From assembly GCA_000708525.1 (NCBI GenBank), contig JMRP01000027.1, positions 1 to 36,924 of the forward strand: DNA of 36,924 nucleotides, written 5' to 3'. Positions 15,232 to 23,144 of the stretch are shown here, piece by piece. A program made the position numbers and the translations under genes. The stretch is from Cyanobium sp. CACIAM 14. GTDB taxonomy: Bacteria > Cyanobacteriota > Cyanobacteriia > PCC-6307 > Cyanobiaceae. The notes under the pieces are model-generated. The model was not told the origin of the DNA, ran no database searches, and saw only the letters and a list, made by a program, of their open reading frames with translations. Within the stretch, counting starts at the first letter, position 1. Each line of letters opens with the position of its first letter.

Positions 15232-15247
15232 TGTGTTGCACATCACA
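15232..15247. promoter_or_regulatory. Candidate CRP/SYCRP1-like operator upstream of the partner-switching module
   Basis: The 16 bases TGTGTTGCACATCACA match the CRP-family consensus TGTGA-N6-TCACA with one mismatch in the left half. They also contain a perfect six-base inverted repeat, GATGTG (15230-15235) and CACATC (15239-15244), around TTG. The site lies 6 bases after the gloB stop and about 73-88 bases before the STAS gene ATG at 15320. Binding by a cyanobacterial cAMP receptor protein is an inference from sequence alone; part of the palindrome could instead act as a small hairpin after gloB. Confidence 0.45.
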
Positions 15248-15319
15248 GCGCCGGGAGCGTCCCGTTAGATGAAGCCGCAAGGCCGTTACAGTCGACAGGA
15301 GCAACATCCAGGCTTGACG

Positions 15320-15688
15320 ATGCAGACGGCTTCGATCCACTCGGACGATGTCCTCGAGGCTGATGGATCCATCAAATTGCGCCGAGTTTCTCTCTCCGGC
15401 CGTCTCGACATGCTGGGGATGGAAGAAATTGCCCTGAAGCTCACATCACTGACGGCCATCCAACCAGTCGGTGTGATTCTTGACCTTCGAGACGTGAGCT
15501 TTCTCGCCTCCATCGGCATTCGCAGCATCATCAGCAGTGCCCGTGCCCTGGACAAGAAAGGTGGACGGATGGTGCTGCTTCTGGGAGCCAACGACCTCGT
15601 GAAGGCCACCTTGGAGTCCGCCGGGATCGATGAAGTGATCCCCCTGTTCGTGGACGACGACGAGGCCGAACGAGCCGCGTTGGCGTGA
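15320..15688 (+). CDS. STAS-domain anti-sigma factor antagonist (RsbV/SpoIIAA-like)
   Basis: A 122-residue protein that is essentially one STAS domain. It starts with a strand [15 protein letters not shown], then [26 protein letters not shown], which is the phospho-loop and following helix, and ends with [18 protein letters not shown]. The Ser in FLASIGIR is the likely phosphorylation site of the partner kinase. In partner switching the unphosphorylated form binds the RsbW-like kinase and frees its target. An in-frame ATG at 15269 would add 17 residues of unlikely sequence, so 15320 is preferred, though neither has a strong ribosome site. The kinase gene follows after 10 bases and the phosphatase after that. 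Confidence 0.87.
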
Positions 15689-15698
15689 GGTTCCCGAG

Positions 15699-16148
15699 AT
15701 GGCTCTCCCCGGTACCGATAGTGTCAATTTTTCGGTGCAGCCCACCCCCCTGGGAATCAGGACCAGTTCGCTATGGCTCAGCGAGAACTGCGTCATGCTT
15801 GACGTCCCCTCCGAGACGGCAGGCAAGCTCGAACTCTGTCTGAACGAAGTCCTGGCCAATCTGATCGATCACGCCGGAGCCGGTCCGTCCAGCCCGCCGG
15901 TCCAGCTCAGCCTGGAACTCGCCGATTGCGGAGACCGGGCCCTCGCCACGCTCACCATCTGCGACGCCGGAGAGGCCTTCGATCCCCTCTCCGTCAGCCA
16001 CGGTCCGCTGCCACGCTCCCTGCAGGAAGCCGAACCCGGCGGCCTGGGGCTTCTGCTGGTCAGGCGTTTCATGGATGAGCTCGGCTACGAGCGAGCTGAT
16101 GGAAGGAACGTGCTTAGGATGGGGGTTTACTGGCCGAAGGATCCTTGA
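15699..16148 (+). CDS. RsbW-like serine kinase / anti-sigma factor (HATPase domain)
   Basis: A 149-residue GHKL-type ATPase of the RsbW/SpoIIAB sort. The N-box reads LELCLNEVLANLIDHA, the G1-box reads ICDAGEAFDP and the G2-box reads GGLGLLLVRRFMDEL. In place of the first ATP-lid residues there is a short loop, as in single-domain anti-sigma kinases. Its expected job is to phosphorylate the STAS protein encoded upstream and to hold a sigma factor or another target; no sigma gene is nearby, so the target is unknown. Its stop TGA overlaps the ATG of the phosphatase gene in a TGATG arrangement, which suggests translational coupling. Confidence 0.86.
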   Translation: MALPGTDSVNFSVQPTPLGIRTSSLWLSENCVMLDVPSETAGKLELCLNEVLANLIDHAGAGPSSPPVQLSLELADCGDRALATLTICDAGEAFDPLSVSHGPLPRSLQEAEPGGLGLLLVRRFMDELGYERADGRNVLRMGVYWPKDP

Positions 16149-17407
16149 TGGGACGTCGCGTCGAGCTGTCACATCTCTCGGATGACGCGACCACCGATCC
16201 ACTGCCCTTCGACGCGATTCCCCTCTTCAGGGATGTCAAGCCCGACCAGTTGATGGCCGCGGTGAGACGCTGCGAGCTTCTCTCCCTCTCACCAGGATCG
16301 GTGCTGCTCAGGCCTGGTCAGTCCAACGAAGACATCTTCATCATTCTGGCGGGAACGGTTTCGGTGCACCTCGGGAGTGAAGGCTACCGGGACAAGGGGA
16401 TCGCCATTCCGATCGGCCAGTGCATCGGTGAGTTCTCCGCCATCGATGGCATGCCGGCTTCAGCCCTGGTGCGGGCAGAGGATGAGGCCACCGTGCTGCG
16501 GATTCCGCAGCGGGTGTTCTGGTCCCACATGGTGCAACTACCTGGAGTGGCTCGCAACATGATGGTCTCCCTGGTGGAGCGCACCCGGCTCACCAATCAG
16601 CTGGCCCTGGAGGCCCAGCGGGAAGCCATGGAGCTCTCCCATCTGCGCAAGGAACTGGATCTGGCACGCGACCTGCAGCGCAGCATGCTGCCGCCTCAGG
16701 GGGCCCTGTTCGCCGAGAATCCCGCGATCGAGCTCTCCAGCCTGATGGAGCCGGCCACCTCGGTGGGGGGTGATTTCTTCGACGCCTTTTTCATCAACGG
16801 GCAGACCCTGTTCGTCTGCATCGGCGATGTCTCAGGGCACGGGCTCGGCCCCGCCCTGTTCATGGCACGCACGATCGGTCTGCTGCGGGTTCTGGCCAAC
16901 ACCGAAACCTCACCGGATGCGGTGCTGCGCCGGCTCAACGACAGCCTCACGGACGGCAACGAAGCCTCTCTGTTCGTGACGATGGTCTGTGGCTTTCTGG
17001 ATGTGAACTCCGGTCGGTTCACCTATTCCAATGCGGGTCACCTGCCGCCGCTGCTACGGCAGAAGAGCGGGACCGCTCCGATTCCGATGCCGAAGGGGGC
17101 GTTGCTTGGCGTGTTCCCGGACCGCACCTACAGCACCCTGAGCCTGCAACTCGATCCAGGCGATCTGCTGATGATCTACACCGACGGGGTCACGGAGGCG
17201 GAGAACATCCATGGCGAACCCTTCGGGCTCGAGGGCTGCCAGCGACTGCTGAACGAAGCCGCCCTGGAACCAGTGGAGGCCGTGATGCAGGAACTGCGCC
17301 ACCGCCTGCGTGGGTTCACCAGCAGCAACACCCTCGAGGACGACTGCACCCTGCTGCTGTTGCGGCGCCCTCCCGAAGCCCCTCTCAGGATGGCGTGGAT
17401 GGCGTGA
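16148..17407 (+). CDS. PP2C-type (SpoIIE/RsbU) phosphatase with N-terminal cyclic-nucleotide-binding-like domain
   Basis: A 419-residue protein. Residues ~25-140 form a cNMP-binding fold (LFRDVKPDQLMAAVRRCELL, GTVSVHLG, GEFSAIDGMPASALVRA). In the phosphate-binding cassette the position usually held by Arg before S/T-A appears to be Ala, so nucleotide binding may be lost or altered. A helical linker (about 140-180) leads to a PP2C/SpoIIE domain with metal ligands in GGDFFDAF (D209), GDVSGHGLGPALFM (D227), YTDGVTEAEN (D346) and LEDDCTLLLL (D398/D399). It would dephosphorylate the STAS protein and so switch the module on. A TTG three bases upstream is open, but the ATG at 16148 overlapping the kinase stop is preferred. 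Confidence 0.88.
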   Translation: MGRRVELSHLSDDATTDPLPFDAIPLFRDVKPDQLMAAVRRCELLSLSPGSVLLRPGQSNEDIFIILAGTVSVHLGSEGYRDKGIAIPIGQCIGEFSAIDGMPASALVRAEDEATVLRIPQRVFWSHMVQLPGVARNMMVSLVERTRLTNQLALEAQREAMELSHLRKELDLARDLQRSMLPPQGALFAENPAIELSSLMEPATSVGGDFFDAFFINGQTLFVCIGDVSGHGLGPALFMARTIGLLRVLANTETSPDAVLRRLNDSLTDGNEASLFVTMVCGFLDVNSGRFTYSNAGHLPPLLRQKSGTAPIPMPKGALLGVFPDRTYSTLSLQLDPGDLLMIYTDGVTEAENIHGEPFGLEGCQRLLNEAALEPVEAVMQELRHRLRGFTSSNTLEDDCTLLLLRRPPEAPLRMAWMA

Positions 17408-20332: not shown

Positions 20333-21277
20333 TCAGGCCAGCCCGAGCAGGTGCCGGTGCAGGCGGAGGCGACCGGGAGCCCCGGCCATCTCCGCCGCCC
20401 GCTCGCGCCAGCCTCGCCAGTGCTCCTCCTGCTGACGTCGCAGTTCCGCCTTCAGGGAGGGGATGGGCCCGGTCCGGCCGGATCCTCGACGGTCGGCCAG
20501 GCGTTCCTGCAGCACCTGCAGGTCGTGCAGCGTGCCCAGCTCGTCCTGGGCCCGTTTCAGCTGGCCGATCCAGCCCACGACCTCCGGATCGAGGAAGGGT
20601 TCCAGGTTCTCCAGGGCATACCGAACCCCCTTGATGCGCTTGCGCAGGGCGTGCAGATCTTCTGAGGCGGGATCATCGGCGCTCCAGCCCGGATGGAGGA
20701 AGAGCCCGGAAACGATGGGCAGCTTCCACTCCAGCAGCCTTTCCTGGAGGGCGGTCTGCCCCAGGGCCGTGAACACCGGACGACGCTGCCAGCGTTGCAG
20801 GCTGGAGAGCAGCCTGAGGTAGCCGCTCCCATTGAGGGCCTCCACCAGCTCCCCGAACGCCAGACGGCGGTCCCTGGCCAGCCGTTGGAGGACCGGCCGC
20901 ATGGCCTTCTTCTCGGAGTCGGGCAGAGGGGGGAGCAGAGAGGTCCGCAGGCGCTCCCCGATCACGTCGAGATCGCGGGTGAGGCCGGTGCGGCGGGCCA
21001 CCCGCGCGATGCGGCCATCGCTGATGGGGGCTGGCAGCACCAGGGCCGGCGCGAACTGGCCCAGGGCCGTGCGCAGCCGCCGGAGAGAGACGCGCAACTG
21101 GTGCAGATCCTCGGGATCGGCATCGGCCAGCACTTTGGGATGGATGGTACCGAGACGGCGCGTCTGCCGCTGAATCAGCCCCAGGGCATGGTCACCGCCG
21201 GAGGCGGCAGGTCCGGCAGCCTCGCCGGGAGGGTCAGCGGGCCGTTGCGGGGACTGGAGCGGGGGGGCACTGACCAT
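20333..21277 (-). CDS. CHAD domain protein
   Basis: A 314-residue all-helical CHAD (conserved histidine alpha-helical) domain protein. Seen features are DLHQLRVSLRRLRTALGQFAP near residue 65 (the His/Arg-rich first repeat), TGLTRDLDVIGERL, and in the second half DLHALRKRIKGVRYALENLEPFL with DELGTLHDLQVLQERLADRR. CHAD domains bind inorganic polyphosphate through these basic and His residues and in some bacteria localise to polyphosphate granules. The ATG at 21277 removes a 36-residue Arg/Pro-rich upstream stretch that does not look coding. It is divergent from the KaiC-like gene with 154 bases between them. Confidence 0.83.
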   Translation of the reverse strand: MVSAPPLQSPQRPADPPGEAAGPAASGGDHALGLIQRQTRRLGTIHPKVLADADPEDLHQLRVSLRRLRTALGQFAPALVLPAPISDGRIARVARRTGLTRDLDVIGERLRTSLLPPLPDSEKKAMRPVLQRLARDRRLAFGELVEALNGSGYLRLLSSLQRWQRRPVFTALGQTALQERLLEWKLPIVSGLFLHPGWSADDPASEDLHALRKRIKGVRYALENLEPFLDPEVVGWIGQLKRAQDELGTLHDLQVLQERLADRRGSGRTGPIPSLKAELRRQQEEHWRGWRERAAEMAGAPGRLRLHRHLLGLA

Positions 21278-21352
21278 GGCGCGGCGGGGAGCGCGGGTCG
21301 GGTCGGGCGGGGCGCTGGGGAGGCCGGCGCCGCGCCGGGGATTCACTCTATG

Positions 21353-21382
21353 GTCGCGATCCGGAACCCCGTCGCGATCCGG
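21353..21382. repeat. Paired 12-base direct repeat in the CHAD / KaiC-like divergent region
   Basis: GTCGCGATCCGG occurs at 21353-21364 and again at 21371-21382, starts 18 bases apart. The pair lies within the 154-base gap between the divergent CHAD and KaiC-like starts, about 50-80 bases upstream of the latter. A tandem operator is possible, but no known regulator motif was recognised. Confidence 0.4.
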
Positions 21383-21431
21383 CAAGCCTGGGGGTCCCGG
21401 ACCCTAGGTTGGCTCCAGACAGGCCAGCGAC

Positions 21432-23144
21432 GTGCAGGACCCAGGGACAGGATCCGGCAGCGGCCACCAATCCGCCGGGCTCGCCAAGGCCCCCACCGGC
21501 ATCCGGGGCTTCGAGGCGATCAGCCACGGGGGACTGCCCCGCGGACGCCCCACATTGATCACGGGAGCCTCCGGCAGCGGCAAGACCCTCTTCGCCATGG
21601 AGTTCCTGGTGCGCGGGGCGCTGCAGTTCGACGAACCGGGCGTGATGCTGACGTTCGAGGAATCGGCCGAGGACATCGCCGCCAACGTCCGCTCCCTCGG
21701 CTTCGACATCGGCGAACTGGTGGCCAGGAAACGGCTGGCCGTCTGTGCCATGCCGATCGATCCGTCGGAGATCATCACGGCCGGCAGCTTCGATCTCGAG
21801 GCCCTGTTCGTGCGGCTGGAGCGGGCGGTTGATTCTGTGGGTGCCCGCCGGGTGGCCCTCGACACCATCGAGGTGCTCCTCACCTGCCTGGGCAACGAGG
21901 TGATCGTGCGCGGCGAACTCTCCCGCCTGTTCCGCCGGCTCAAGCAGCGGGGGCTCACCACCGTGGTCACCGGCGAGCGCGGCCGCGCCGGCGATCTCAC
22001 CCGCTTCGGCATCGAGGACTACGTCTCCGATTGCGTGCTGGTGCTCGACCAGCGGGTCGACAACGAGATCTCCACCCGGCGGCTGCGGATCGTGAAATAC
22101 CGGGGCTCGGTGCACGCCACCAACGAGTTCCCGTTCCTGATCACCGACCGGGGCCTGACGGTGCTGCCCATCACGGCGGTGGCCCTCACCTATCCGGCGG
22201 CGACCGAACGGATCTCAAGCGGCATCGAACGGCTGGACGGGATGCTGGGCGGCGGGATCTACCGCGGCTCCACGGTGCTGATCAGCGGCAGCGCCGGCAC
22301 GGGCAAGACCACCCTGGTGGCCCACCTGATCGAGGCGGCCTGCCGCCGGGGCGAGCGGGCCCTGTTCCTCTCCTATGAGGAATCCCCGGACCAGCTGATC
22401 CGCAACATGGCTTCGGTGGGCCTGGAGCTGCAGCCCTGGATCGACGCCGGCCTGCTGACGCTCTGGGCCGAGCGCGCCACCGCCCATGGACTGGAGGAGC
22501 ATCTCGACCGGCTCGACCGGCTGCTGGACGACTTCCAGCCGCGGATGGCAGCGCTCGACGCCATGGGAAGTCTGGTCCAGATCGGCTCCCGGCGGGAAGT
22601 GACGGCGGCCCTGGCCCGGCAGATCGATCTGATGAAGGGCCGCGGCATCACCGCCGTGCTCACCTCCCTCACCCATGGCGAGGAGAGCGAGAGCAGTGCG
22701 GTCGCCGTGTCCTCCCTCACCGACACCTGGCTGCTGCTGCGCAACGTCGAGAGCGACGGGGAGCGCAACCGGCTGCTGTTCGTGATCAAGAGCCGGGGCA
22801 TGGCCCACTCCAACCAGGTGCGGGAGTTCGTGATCAGCGATCGGGGCGCCGAACTGCTCGACGTGGCGCTCGGCCCCGAAGGGGTGCTGACCGGTTCGGC
22901 CCGCCTGGCGCACGAGAGGACGCTCGCCTCCGCCGCCGCCCGACTGGAGGCCGAGATCGCCCGCCGCCGGGCCCTGCTGGCCAGGCAGGAGAGCGCCACT
23001 GCCGCGCAGATTGCGGCGCTGCAGGGGGAACTGGAGGCGGAGCGCGTCGCCTTCGAGGCTTTCGTGGCCGAGGAATACCGCCGCCAGCAGGAGCAGTCCA
23101 GGGACCGGTCGGGACGCGAGCGGCAGGGGGAGGACGCTCCCTGA
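21432..23144 (+). CDS. kaiC2: KaiC2-like double RecA-domain ATPase
   Basis: A 570-residue KaiC-family protein with two RecA-like domains. CI has Walker A GASGSGKT (45-52) and the catalytic Glu pair at 76-77 (LTFEESAED). CII has Walker A GSAGTGKT (286-293) and Glu pair 316-317 (LSYEESPDQ). At the place of the clock KaiC phosphosites S431/T432 it reads SSLTDT, with Ser427-Ser428, as in the KaiC2 group rather than the Ser-Thr of clock KaiC. The C-terminal ~80 residues are a charged Glu/Arg/Ala coiled-coil, not the KaiA-binding tail. No kaiA or kaiB is in the window. A role outside the core clock is likely but unproven. The start is the GTG at 21432. Confidence 0.86.
   Translation: MQDPGTGSGSGHQSAGLAKAPTGIRGFEAISHGGLPRGRPTLITGASGSGKTLFAMEFLVRGALQFDEPGVMLTFEESAEDIAANVRSLGFDIGELVARKRLAVCAMPIDPSEIITAGSFDLEALFVRLERAVDSVGARRVALDTIEVLLTCLGNEVIVRGELSRLFRRLKQRGLTTVVTGERGRAGDLTRFGIEDYVSDCVLVLDQRVDNEISTRRLRIVKYRGSVHATNEFPFLITDRGLTVLPITAVALTYPAATERISSGIERLDGMLGGGIYRGSTVLISGSAGTGKTTLVAHLIEAACRRGERALFLSYEESPDQLIRNMASVGLELQPWIDAGLLTLWAERATAHGLEEHLDRLDRLLDDFQPRMAALDAMGSLVQIGSRREVTAALARQIDLMKGRGITAVLTSLTHGEESESSAVAVSSLTDTWLLLRNVESDGERNRLLFVIKSRGMAHSNQVREFVISDRGAELLDVALGPEGVLTGSARLAHERTLASAAARLEAEIARRRALLARQESATAAQIAALQGELEAERVAFEAFVAEEYRRQQEQSRDRSGRERQGEDAP

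What the first reader, a model, noticed from the sequence alone, without database searches (positions are those of the whole stretch)
15232..17407. Three-gene partner-switching module behind a CRP-like palindrome
STAS antagonist, RsbW-like kinase and an RsbU/SpoIIE phosphatase are packed with gaps of 10 bases and then a one-base stop/start overlap, so they probably form a complete switch. Upstream lies TGTGTTGCACATCACA, one mismatch from the CRP consensus, and the phosphatase itself has a cNMP-type sensor domain. Together these suggest that a cyclic nucleotide could act on both transcription and activity. Against this, the phosphate-binding cassette of the sensor domain seems to lack the usual Arg (Ala at that place). 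No sigma factor or other obvious target is near, so what the switch controls is open. The module is also somewhat less GC-rich than its neighbours.
Basis: partly seen in the sequence, partly recalled or inferred. Interest (0 to 1): 0.66.

Follow-up and report, generated by a model that had tools for sequence, protein, structure and literature searches.

The report
Partner switch with altered nucleotide sensor
Three adjacent genes form a protein switch, shared by freshwater picocyanobacteria and betaproteobacteria, whose sensor resembles a cyclic-AMP receptor but, in every copy read, lacks the residue that grips the cyclic phosphate, so it probably senses something else.

Summary
STAS (15320-15688), RsbW-like kinase (15699-16148) and cNMP-domain/SpoIIE phosphatase (16148-17407) form an intact operon behind the palindrome at 15232-15247. 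The STAS start is better placed at 15320 than at the ORF's first ATG (15269).

The cyclic-nucleotide reading is not supported. The palindrome is real: kept in 12 of 15 cassette loci at fixed distance from the STAS start, 88% column identity against 40% upstream. But its shared form is TGTGTTGCACAACACA, with T at position 5 in 12 of 12. In five of those 12 genomes no CRP-type regulator was found. The TAN3T box lies 39 bp downstream, not ~22 bp. The phosphatase's cNMP domain has no Arg at the phosphate-contacting position in 60 of 60 readable homologues, while kinase, phospho-Ser and nearly all phosphatase catalytic residues tested are invariant.

New here: the same cassette lies in 59 of 62 related loci (24 titled cyanobacterial, 38 betaproteobacterial). 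Cyanobacterial copies form one branch, nested among betaproteobacterial ones as rooted, and the module is low in GC, which suggests transfer. Best reading: an Rsb-type partner switch with a non-canonical sensor and a dedicated, probably non-CRP operator; target unlinked and unknown. New variant of a known kind.

The parts
15232..15247 (.). 16-bp palindrome TGTGTTGCACATCACA; clade consensus TGTGTTG-CA-CAACACA; probable operator of the operon
   Evidence: Kept in 12 of 15 cassette loci at fixed distance from the STAS start, variable distance (6-60 nt) from the gloB stop; two further species, L222 and L223
15287..15292 (+). -10-like TACAGT; TAN3T in 11 of 12 aligned promoters
   Evidence: Aligned promoters; that the palindrome lies at about -60 is an inference
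15320..15688 (+). STAS protein (122 aa; phospho-acceptor Ser64, codon 15509-15511)
   Evidence: Pfam STAS 1.2e-10; Ser in 60 of 60 readable homologues; start revised from 15269
15699..16148 (+). RsbW-like serine kinase (149 aa), Glu50/Asn54 of the ATP-binding N box
   Evidence: HATPase_c_2 5.3e-20; Glu and Asn in 60 of 60; best PDB match anti-sigma F factor, E 8.4e-4
16148..17407 (+). Sensor phosphatase (419 aa): cNMP-type domain, long helix, SpoIIE/PPM domain
16217..16528 (+). cNMP-type sensor domain (about residues 24-127)
   Evidence: Pfam cNMP_binding 3.4e-10; CRP-like fold, Z 17.3 to 4a2u
16427..16471 (+). Phosphate-binding cassette GEFSAIDGMPASALV; Ala104 at the Arg position
   Evidence: No Arg in 60 of 60 readable homologues; alignment to the SthK domain, which has Arg there
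16547..16684 (+). Helix 134-179, probable coiled-coil transmitter to the phosphatase
   Evidence: AlphaFold model, pLDDT 63-78 in blocks of ten here; mechanism by analogy with PMC12143880
16799..17368 (+). SpoIIE/PPM phosphatase domain
   Evidence: Pfam 1.5e-52; catalytic Asp residues conserved

Best explanation
A self-contained RsbV/RsbW/RsbU-type partner switch, probably acquired from a freshwater betaproteobacterium. Inferred steps: the RsbW-like kinase phosphorylates Ser64 of the STAS protein. The phosphatase removes the phosphate when its N-terminal cNMP-type domain, acting through the 134-179 helix, lets the phosphatase domains pair. Dephosphorylated STAS protein binds the kinase and frees, or itself acts on, an unlinked target. 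The sensor domain keeps the cyclic-nucleotide-binding fold and Glu95 but lacks, across the family read, the Arg that holds the cyclic phosphate, so it most likely answers to another ligand or a protein. Transcription starts near 15299 from a promoter whose palindrome sits at about -60; at up to one mismatch the motif occurs only here in the eight module-bearing genomes where it was found, and its binder is probably not the CRP-type protein of this genome. Shown by sequence: trio, intact residues, missing Arg, conserved palindrome, genomes without a detected CRP-type protein, distribution. Inferred: all activities, ligand, binder, start site, direction of transfer, target.
For: Domains. Conservation among readable homologues: STAS Ser 60/60, kinase Glu and Asn 60/60, phosphatase Asp209 and Asp227 62/62, Asp398 and Asp399 59/59; cassette Glu95 60/60 but Arg 0/60 (V38 A13 I5 T2 S1 L1). 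STAS-RsbW-RsbU order in 59 of 62 loci. Footprint 0.88 identity in the palindrome against 0.40 and 0.57 beside it. Motif with up to 1 mismatch: in the 8 module-bearing genomes with a match, the only match is this promoter. CRP-type regulator not found in 5 of 12 palindrome genomes, of which 4 are 99-100% complete. Cyanobacterial phosphatases are one side of a branch (SH-aLRT 100), nested among Pseudomonadota as rooted; module GC 0.629 against 0.703. Long helix and PPM fold like RssB, SiaA and Rv1364c RsbU.
Against: No activity, binding or expression is known. 7 of 12 palindrome genomes do carry a CRP-type protein. The motif also has 3 matches in two in-genus genomes without the module and 12 in seven genomes of other genera. 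The outgroup attaches by long branches and is not clean, so the direction of transfer is unsure. RsbU is split over frames in 2 of 15 loci (G002, G024), so the switch is dispensable or those assemblies are faulty. Arg-less cNMP domains are not rare in this genome (13 of 19 regions lack it at the usual place). No protein was found that pairs with the palindrome, and the target is unknown. pTM is only 0.61.
Confidence: 0.64

Rival explanations
1. One reading: CRP with cAMP activates the operon and the same messenger sets the phosphatase, giving double control by one cyclic nucleotide.
For: Palindrome one mismatch from TGTGA-N6-TCACA; a CRP-like protein with a CRP-type recognition helix at C40; five cyclase-domain matches in the genome; TGTG-N8-CACA spacing.
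Against: Position 5 is T in 12 of 12 and position 12 is T in only 3 of 12. CRP-type regulator not found in 5 of 12. In G006, G008 and G022 the recognition helix reads ARGTTSR instead of RET, yet the palindrome is kept. TAN3T is 39 bp downstream, not about 22 bp as in most characterised cyanobacterial CRP promoters. Sensor Arg absent in 60 of 60.
Confidence: 0.1
2. The palindrome is read by another CRP/FNR-superfamily protein common to the palindrome genomes, such as NtcA or the L046-type (PtrA-like, name recalled) regulator.
For: NtcA read in 12 of 12 palindrome genomes; the L046 class read in 11 of 12, with a match of the same score, not read, in G024. GTG-N8-CAC has the spacing of NtcA sites GTA-N8-TAC (recalled).
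Against: Both are also in the 3 cassette genomes without the palindrome; their helices (TRVT) are of the NtcA kind; no convincing related motif upstream of their own genes.
Confidence: 0.27
3. The sensor domain still binds a cyclic nucleotide, in a way that does not need the Arg.
For: Fold and Glu95 are kept; the rest of the cassette is strongly conserved, so the pocket is in use.
Against: Arg is missing in 60 of 60. In trypanosome PKA domains that lack it, nucleosides replace cAMP (PMC10959531, passages).
Confidence: 0.17
4. The output is not a sigma factor: the STAS protein or kinase controls a SulP-type anion transporter that carries its own STAS and cNMP domains.
For: Such genes adjoin the cassette in L228, L230, L233, L234 (one cyanobacterial lineage, partly in fragments; fragments also in L239) and in two betaproteobacterial loci, L246 and L249. 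A large HEAT/cNMP protein (weak TLC-transporter match in L226) does so in L225 and L226. cNMP_binding is the commonest family of 85 flanking ORFs, 9 members. The own genome has an unlinked 51% homologue of the L228 protein.
Against: Of 62 loci searched with the two SulP proteins only these seven matched, and none of the gloB-linked, palindrome-bearing ones. The neighbours' cNMP domains are of mixed kind: Arg in L225, L246, L249, Thr in L228. In Synechocystis the analogous kinase Slr1861 controls SigC (PMC12329169).
Confidence: 0.2

Closest known systems
Synechocystis Slr1861 / Ssr1600 / Slr1856 / IcfG (SigC cascade; PMC12329169, abstract and passages)
   Same: RsbW-like kinase, STAS antagonists and a phosphatase in a cyanobacterium; phosphorylation-controlled partner switching shown there
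   Different: ssr1600 lies away from the kinase gene, and SigC is the target. Here there are three adjacent genes, a cNMP-type sensor, no known sigma target, and related cassettes in betaproteobacteria; sequence relation to Slr1861 not tested here
Nostoc HmpU/HmpV/HmpW (seen only as described in PMC8256260 and PMC6495340, passages)
   Same: Three-part cyanobacterial partner switch in which the STAS protein may be the output
   Different: Controls hormogonium development; sequence relation not tested here
B. subtilis RsbU/RsbV/RsbW and the coiled-coil linker mechanism (PMC12143880, abstract and passages)
   Same: Same three activities; sensor, helical linker, PPM phosphatase
   Different: Sensor domain and signal differ; no SigB-like partner identified
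P. aeruginosa RssB and SiaA phosphatases
   Same: Among the best structural matches of the phosphatase part, for RssB with the preceding helix
   Different: Receiver or other sensors instead of the cNMP-type domain; outputs in other pathways (recalled)
Trypanosomatid PKA regulatory subunit (PMC10959531, passages)
   Same: cNMP-fold domain in which the phosphate-contacting Arg is replaced; ligand changed to nucleosides
   Different: That family gains a Glu at the Ala202 position; here that position is Ser97

Membership tests
Rsb-type partner-switching module | STAS antagonist with conserved phospho-Ser | tested here: met
   Ser64 in 60 of 60 readable; Pfam STAS
Rsb-type partner-switching module | HATPase_c_2 kinase with intact N box | tested here: met
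   Glu50 and Asn54 60 of 60 readable
Rsb-type partner-switching module | PPM/SpoIIE phosphatase with metal-binding Asp residues | tested here: met
   Asp209, 227 in 62 of 62, Asp398, 399 in 59 of 59; Asp346 in 13 of 13; Asp212 is Glu in 1 of 62
Rsb-type partner-switching module | Phosphorylation, dephosphorylation and partner exchange | not testable with these tools
   Needs biochemistry
Rsb-type partner-switching module | Sigma factor as target | tested here: inconclusive
   None on this contig; seven Sigma70_r2 matches elsewhere
Canonical cyclic-nucleotide-binding domain | cNMP fold | tested here: met
   Pfam 3.4e-10; Z 17.3 to 4a2u, 16.8 to 3r6s
Canonical cyclic-nucleotide-binding domain | Arg in the phosphate-binding cassette | tested here: not met
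   Ala104; no Arg in 60 of 60 readable homologues
Cyanobacterial CRP regulon | TGTGA-N6-TCACA site | tested here: not met
   Window one mismatch away, but consensus TGTGTTGCACAACACA, position 5 T in 12 of 12; feature stated in PMC2633013
Cyanobacterial CRP regulon | TAN3T about 22 bp downstream of the site (most characterised promoters) | tested here: not met
   39 bp between 15247 and 15287 (feature)
Cyanobacterial CRP regulon | CRP present wherever the site is kept | tested here: not met
   No CRP-type protein found in 5 of 12
Cyanobacterial CRP regulon | cAMP-dependent binding of CRP | not testable with these tools
   Needs gel shift

The most novel reading that the evidence does not exclude
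A family of partner switches shared by betaproteobacteria and picocyanobacteria whose sensor is a cNMP-fold domain retuned to an uncharged metabolite, for example a purine nucleoside, marked by GE-x-Ser-Ala-Ile-Asp and a small or aliphatic residue in place of Arg; it would couple nucleoside or nutrient state to anion transport or transcription.
Probability: 0.15. Interest if true: 0.78.

Novelty: new variant of a known kind. Interest (0 to 1): 0.5.

Why it matters
It replaces a plausible but probably wrong annotation (cAMP-controlled switch) by a testable one. A family of sensor phosphatases keeps the cyclic-nucleotide fold and lacks its key contact, apparently under selection. If the ligand is found, it names a new input for bacterial partner switching and may explain why a cassette known mainly from betaproteobacteria was kept by freshwater picocyanobacteria. 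The operator, found once per genome in the module-bearing genomes with a match, gives a direct handle to fish for its regulator.

Tried and rejected
gloB terminator as the meaning of the palindrome: rejected, because its distance to the gloB stop varies from 6 to 60 nt while that to the STAS start is fixed.

Chance CRP site: the genome-wide count alone (18 against 13) could not exclude it; conservation did.

Copies of the motif upstream of CRP-family genes, to find the binder: only scattered hits with 3 or 4 mismatches.

Conserved neighbours as clue to the target: in the close relatives gloB is upstream in 13 of 14 loci. Betaproteobacterial neighbours are mixed; a gene with EAL and GGDEF domains follows the cassette in L242, the only such case among the 20 neighbours shown singly. 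ORFs there were called by a codon-position GC filter of mine, which can miss or invent genes. An earlier clustering of ORFs by length was spoiled by spurious ORFs and not used.

Operator in the 34 betaproteobacterial loci read: no exact TGTG-N8-CACA; one-mismatch hits in L247, L249, L258 and L273 look scattered. In the second cyanobacterial clade TGTGTCCTGGACGACA recurs at -85 to -91 in L228, L230 and L234 (one base different in L239), and L229 has TGTGTTGCCCGACACC at -80; in L228 and L234 it lies just after a neighbouring stop codon, so not interpreted.

In one search the row for position 269 is a wrong TDG motif of mine and is to be ignored. The right one is Asp346.

Literature: searches listed no paper whose title or start of abstract describes this cassette (one search listed 15 of 23, 10 of 21); the library lacks most subscription journals.
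Full report
Observation. Pfam gives STAS, HATPase_c_2 and cNMP_binding plus SpoIIE, all above cut-off. The STAS start should be moved to ATG 15320. In at least six of 14 orthologous loci the frame upstream of it runs into a stop, and of the 12 palindrome-bearing loci 11 have ATG at the aligned place or one codon before it (L042 has ATT). The predicted protein is then 122 aa, and the first ATG at 15269 lies between the palindrome and the -10-like box. Module GC is 0.629 against 0.703 for the window; it is also lower than its surroundings in 11 of 11 gloB-linked named loci (L221 measured with shifted coordinates), but not in the three betaproteobacterial loci measured (L246, L249, L251).

Distribution in close relatives. 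Of 60 genomes (own included), 21 match the phosphatase at 1e-30: 15 of 37 in the genus, and 6 of 23 in other genera, where only residues from about 132 on match. In the 14 other in-genus loci all three genes are present in order, 13 of them behind gloB. In G002 and G024 the phosphatase gene is split over frames.

The palindrome. In 12 of the 15 cassette loci (window included) the 16-mer lies at the same distance from the STAS start (72 nt to the codon aligned with ATG 15320, 71 in L039), while the distance to the gloB stop varies from 6 to 60. Mean pairwise column identity is 0.88 inside, 0.40 in the 20 columns upstream and 0.57 in the 44 columns downstream. The three most diverged loci (L040, L041, L044) lack it. 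Two further species, L222 and L223, have it. The shared form is TGTGTTG-CA-CAACACA. Position 5 is T in 12 of 12; position 12 is A in 7, T in 3, G in 2. The window's version is one of the closest to the CRP consensus. A TAN3T box follows in 11 of 12, 39 bp after the palindrome in the window, which puts the palindrome centre at about -60 if transcription starts near 15299 (inference). PMC2633013 gives TGTGAN6TCACA and a TAN3T box about 22 bp downstream for most characterised cyanobacterial CRP promoters (passages).

Who binds it. With the pattern TGTGTTGNNCAACACA and up to one mismatch, over 36 genomes, the eight module-bearing genomes with a match (G000, G002, G003, G004, G006, G008, G012, G013) have exactly one each, at this promoter, and none for the reversed control. 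G009 and G022 have more mismatches and G010 lacks it. Three matches fall in two in-genus genomes without the module (G015, G021) and 12 in seven genomes of other genera; these 15 were not examined. The own genome has a CRP-like protein at C40 with a CRP-type helix (ARETASR) and the cassette Arg. Its relatives at 1e-15 are not found in G003, G004, G012, G013 and G025. In these five, every HTH_Crp_2 match over the cut-off was read; they fall in the NtcA, L046, L047 or small other classes, with TRVT-type helices wherever the helix was read (L191 from G025 is cut by a stop and shows none). G012 is 85% complete, the other four 99-100%. In G006, G008 and G022 the CRP-type helix reads ARGTTSR, yet the palindrome is kept. 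In G009, whose CRP-like protein is 87% identical to the own one, the palindrome has changes in both outer ends that CRP would read (TTTGTTGCACAACACC). CRP is therefore an unlikely binder. Another CRP/FNR-type protein remains possible.

The sensor. The cassette reads GEFSAIDGMPASALV. In the alignment to the SthK domain the Ala stands where the Arg is. A tblastn over 62 related loci gave 60 readable cassettes: Val 38, Ala 13, Ile 5, Thr 2, Ser 1, Leu 1, and never Arg, while Glu95 is 60 of 60. As a control, 19 cNMP regions of the own genome (window's included) were read by eye: six (C45, C40, C24, C4, one of C19, C6) have the Arg at the usual place; the other 13 are NtcA-like or otherwise diverged. 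So lack of Arg is not rare in itself; what stands out is a whole family with the lack fixed and the surroundings tightly kept. By contrast, STAS Ser64, kinase Glu50/Asn54 and the phosphatase Asp residues are intact (Asp212 is Glu in one of 62; the row for position 269 used a wrong motif and is void). The trypanosome PKA case shows that cNMP-fold domains without this Arg can bind nucleosides (PMC10959531, passages); the Glu that marks those domains is Ser97 here, so the parallel is loose.

Structure. AlphaFold on 13 sequences: mean pLDDT 80.2, pTM 0.61; cNMP domain, helix 134-179, PPM domain. Best Foldseek matches are P. aeruginosa RssB, Rv1364c RsbU, SpoIIE and SiaA; by VIA-align Rv1364c Z 26.0, SiaA 24.9, RssB 22.3; for the sensor part M. 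tuberculosis CRP with cAMP Z 17.3 and GlxR 16.8. A fold match does not show ligand binding. PMC12143880 (abstract and passages) reports evidence that coiled-coil linkers carry signals from diverse sensors to such phosphatases; that is the mechanism I borrow.

Wider family. The named-genome scan with two peptide patterns found 82 relatives, 80 kept, a lower bound. L217-L278 (62 loci) are close relatives: by record title 24 cyanobacterial (Cyanobium, Synechococcus, Vulcanococcus and others) and 38 betaproteobacterial, many of them MAGs whose titles may be wrong (L270 is titled Bordetella parapertussis). STAS, kinase and phosphatase stand in order in 59 of 62; in L241 the STAS gene is not seen and the contig ends there, and L277 and L278 lack the order. 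In the tree of 65 rows (window, 58 of the 62 loci, six others) the 22 cyanobacterial rows form one side of a branch (SH-aLRT 100) inside a 49-row set with 26 Pseudomonadota rows (99), as rooted; outgroup branches are long and not clean. With the patchy occurrence in the genus and the low GC, one transfer from betaproteobacteria is the simplest reading, not a proven one.

Target. None of the seven sigma-factor matches lies on this contig. Of 85 flanking ORFs at cassettes outside the gloB-linked, palindrome-bearing clade, nine carry cNMP domains, five STAS, four SulP permease domains. The nine come from about four lineages: SulP-STAS-cNMP in four related cyanobacteria and, separately, in L246 and L249; a large HEAT/cNMP protein (weak TLC-transporter match in L226) in L225 and L226, where L225 also has a second small one. 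Searched with two of the SulP proteins, 7 of 62 loci matched, none of them gloB-linked with palindrome. The own genome has a 51% identical homologue of the L228 SulP protein at C34, unlinked. This is a lead for a transporter target; Slr1861-SigC in Synechocystis (PMC12329169, abstract and passages) is the lead for a sigma target. I cannot decide between them.

Verdict. What is there is best read as an Rsb-type partner switch of a cross-phylum family with a non-canonical sensor and a dedicated operator.

Noticed in passing
L111 / G000:C40:20738-20753 and 21271-21966: The own CRP-like gene has the genome's only perfect TGTGA-N6-TCACA about 520 bp upstream: possible autoregulation or regulation of a gene between.
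   Followed up: no
G006:C12:75083-76511 and G022:C1:2761513-2762919: In two relatives the CRP-like match lies within 200 bp of a cyclase-domain match on the same strand: possibly a receptor and cyclase pair.
   Followed up: no
L042/L232 (G002, Microcystis elabens FACHB-917) and L043/L240 (G024, Cyanobium sp. Cruz CV13-4-11): Phosphatase gene split over reading frames; in L043 the STAS gene also ends early. Decay of the switch or assembly errors.
   Followed up: partly
L228, L230, L233, L234, L246, L249: SulP permease with C-terminal STAS and cNMP domains next to the cassette, upstream in cyanobacteria (in pieces in L230 and L233) and downstream in two betaproteobacterial loci.
   Followed up: partly
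L261 and L262: Two tandem STAS matches before the kinase in two Gallionellaceae MAGs.
   Followed up: no
L227 and L229: Vulcanococcus limneticus LL carries two cassettes on different contigs; L227 is followed by an S-adenosylmethionine decarboxylase gene.
   Followed up: no
G000:C1:214403-215330 and G000:C1:229642-230995: Other partner-switch parts in the own genome: STAS and SpoIIE matches side by side on opposite strands, and a STAS match about 700 bp from an HATPase_c_2 match.
   Followed up: no
L228, L230, L234, L239, about -85 to -91 from STAS: A recurring TGTGTCCTGGACGACA-like sequence at nearly the same distance as the palindrome of the window's clade; could be a diverged operator.
   Followed up: no
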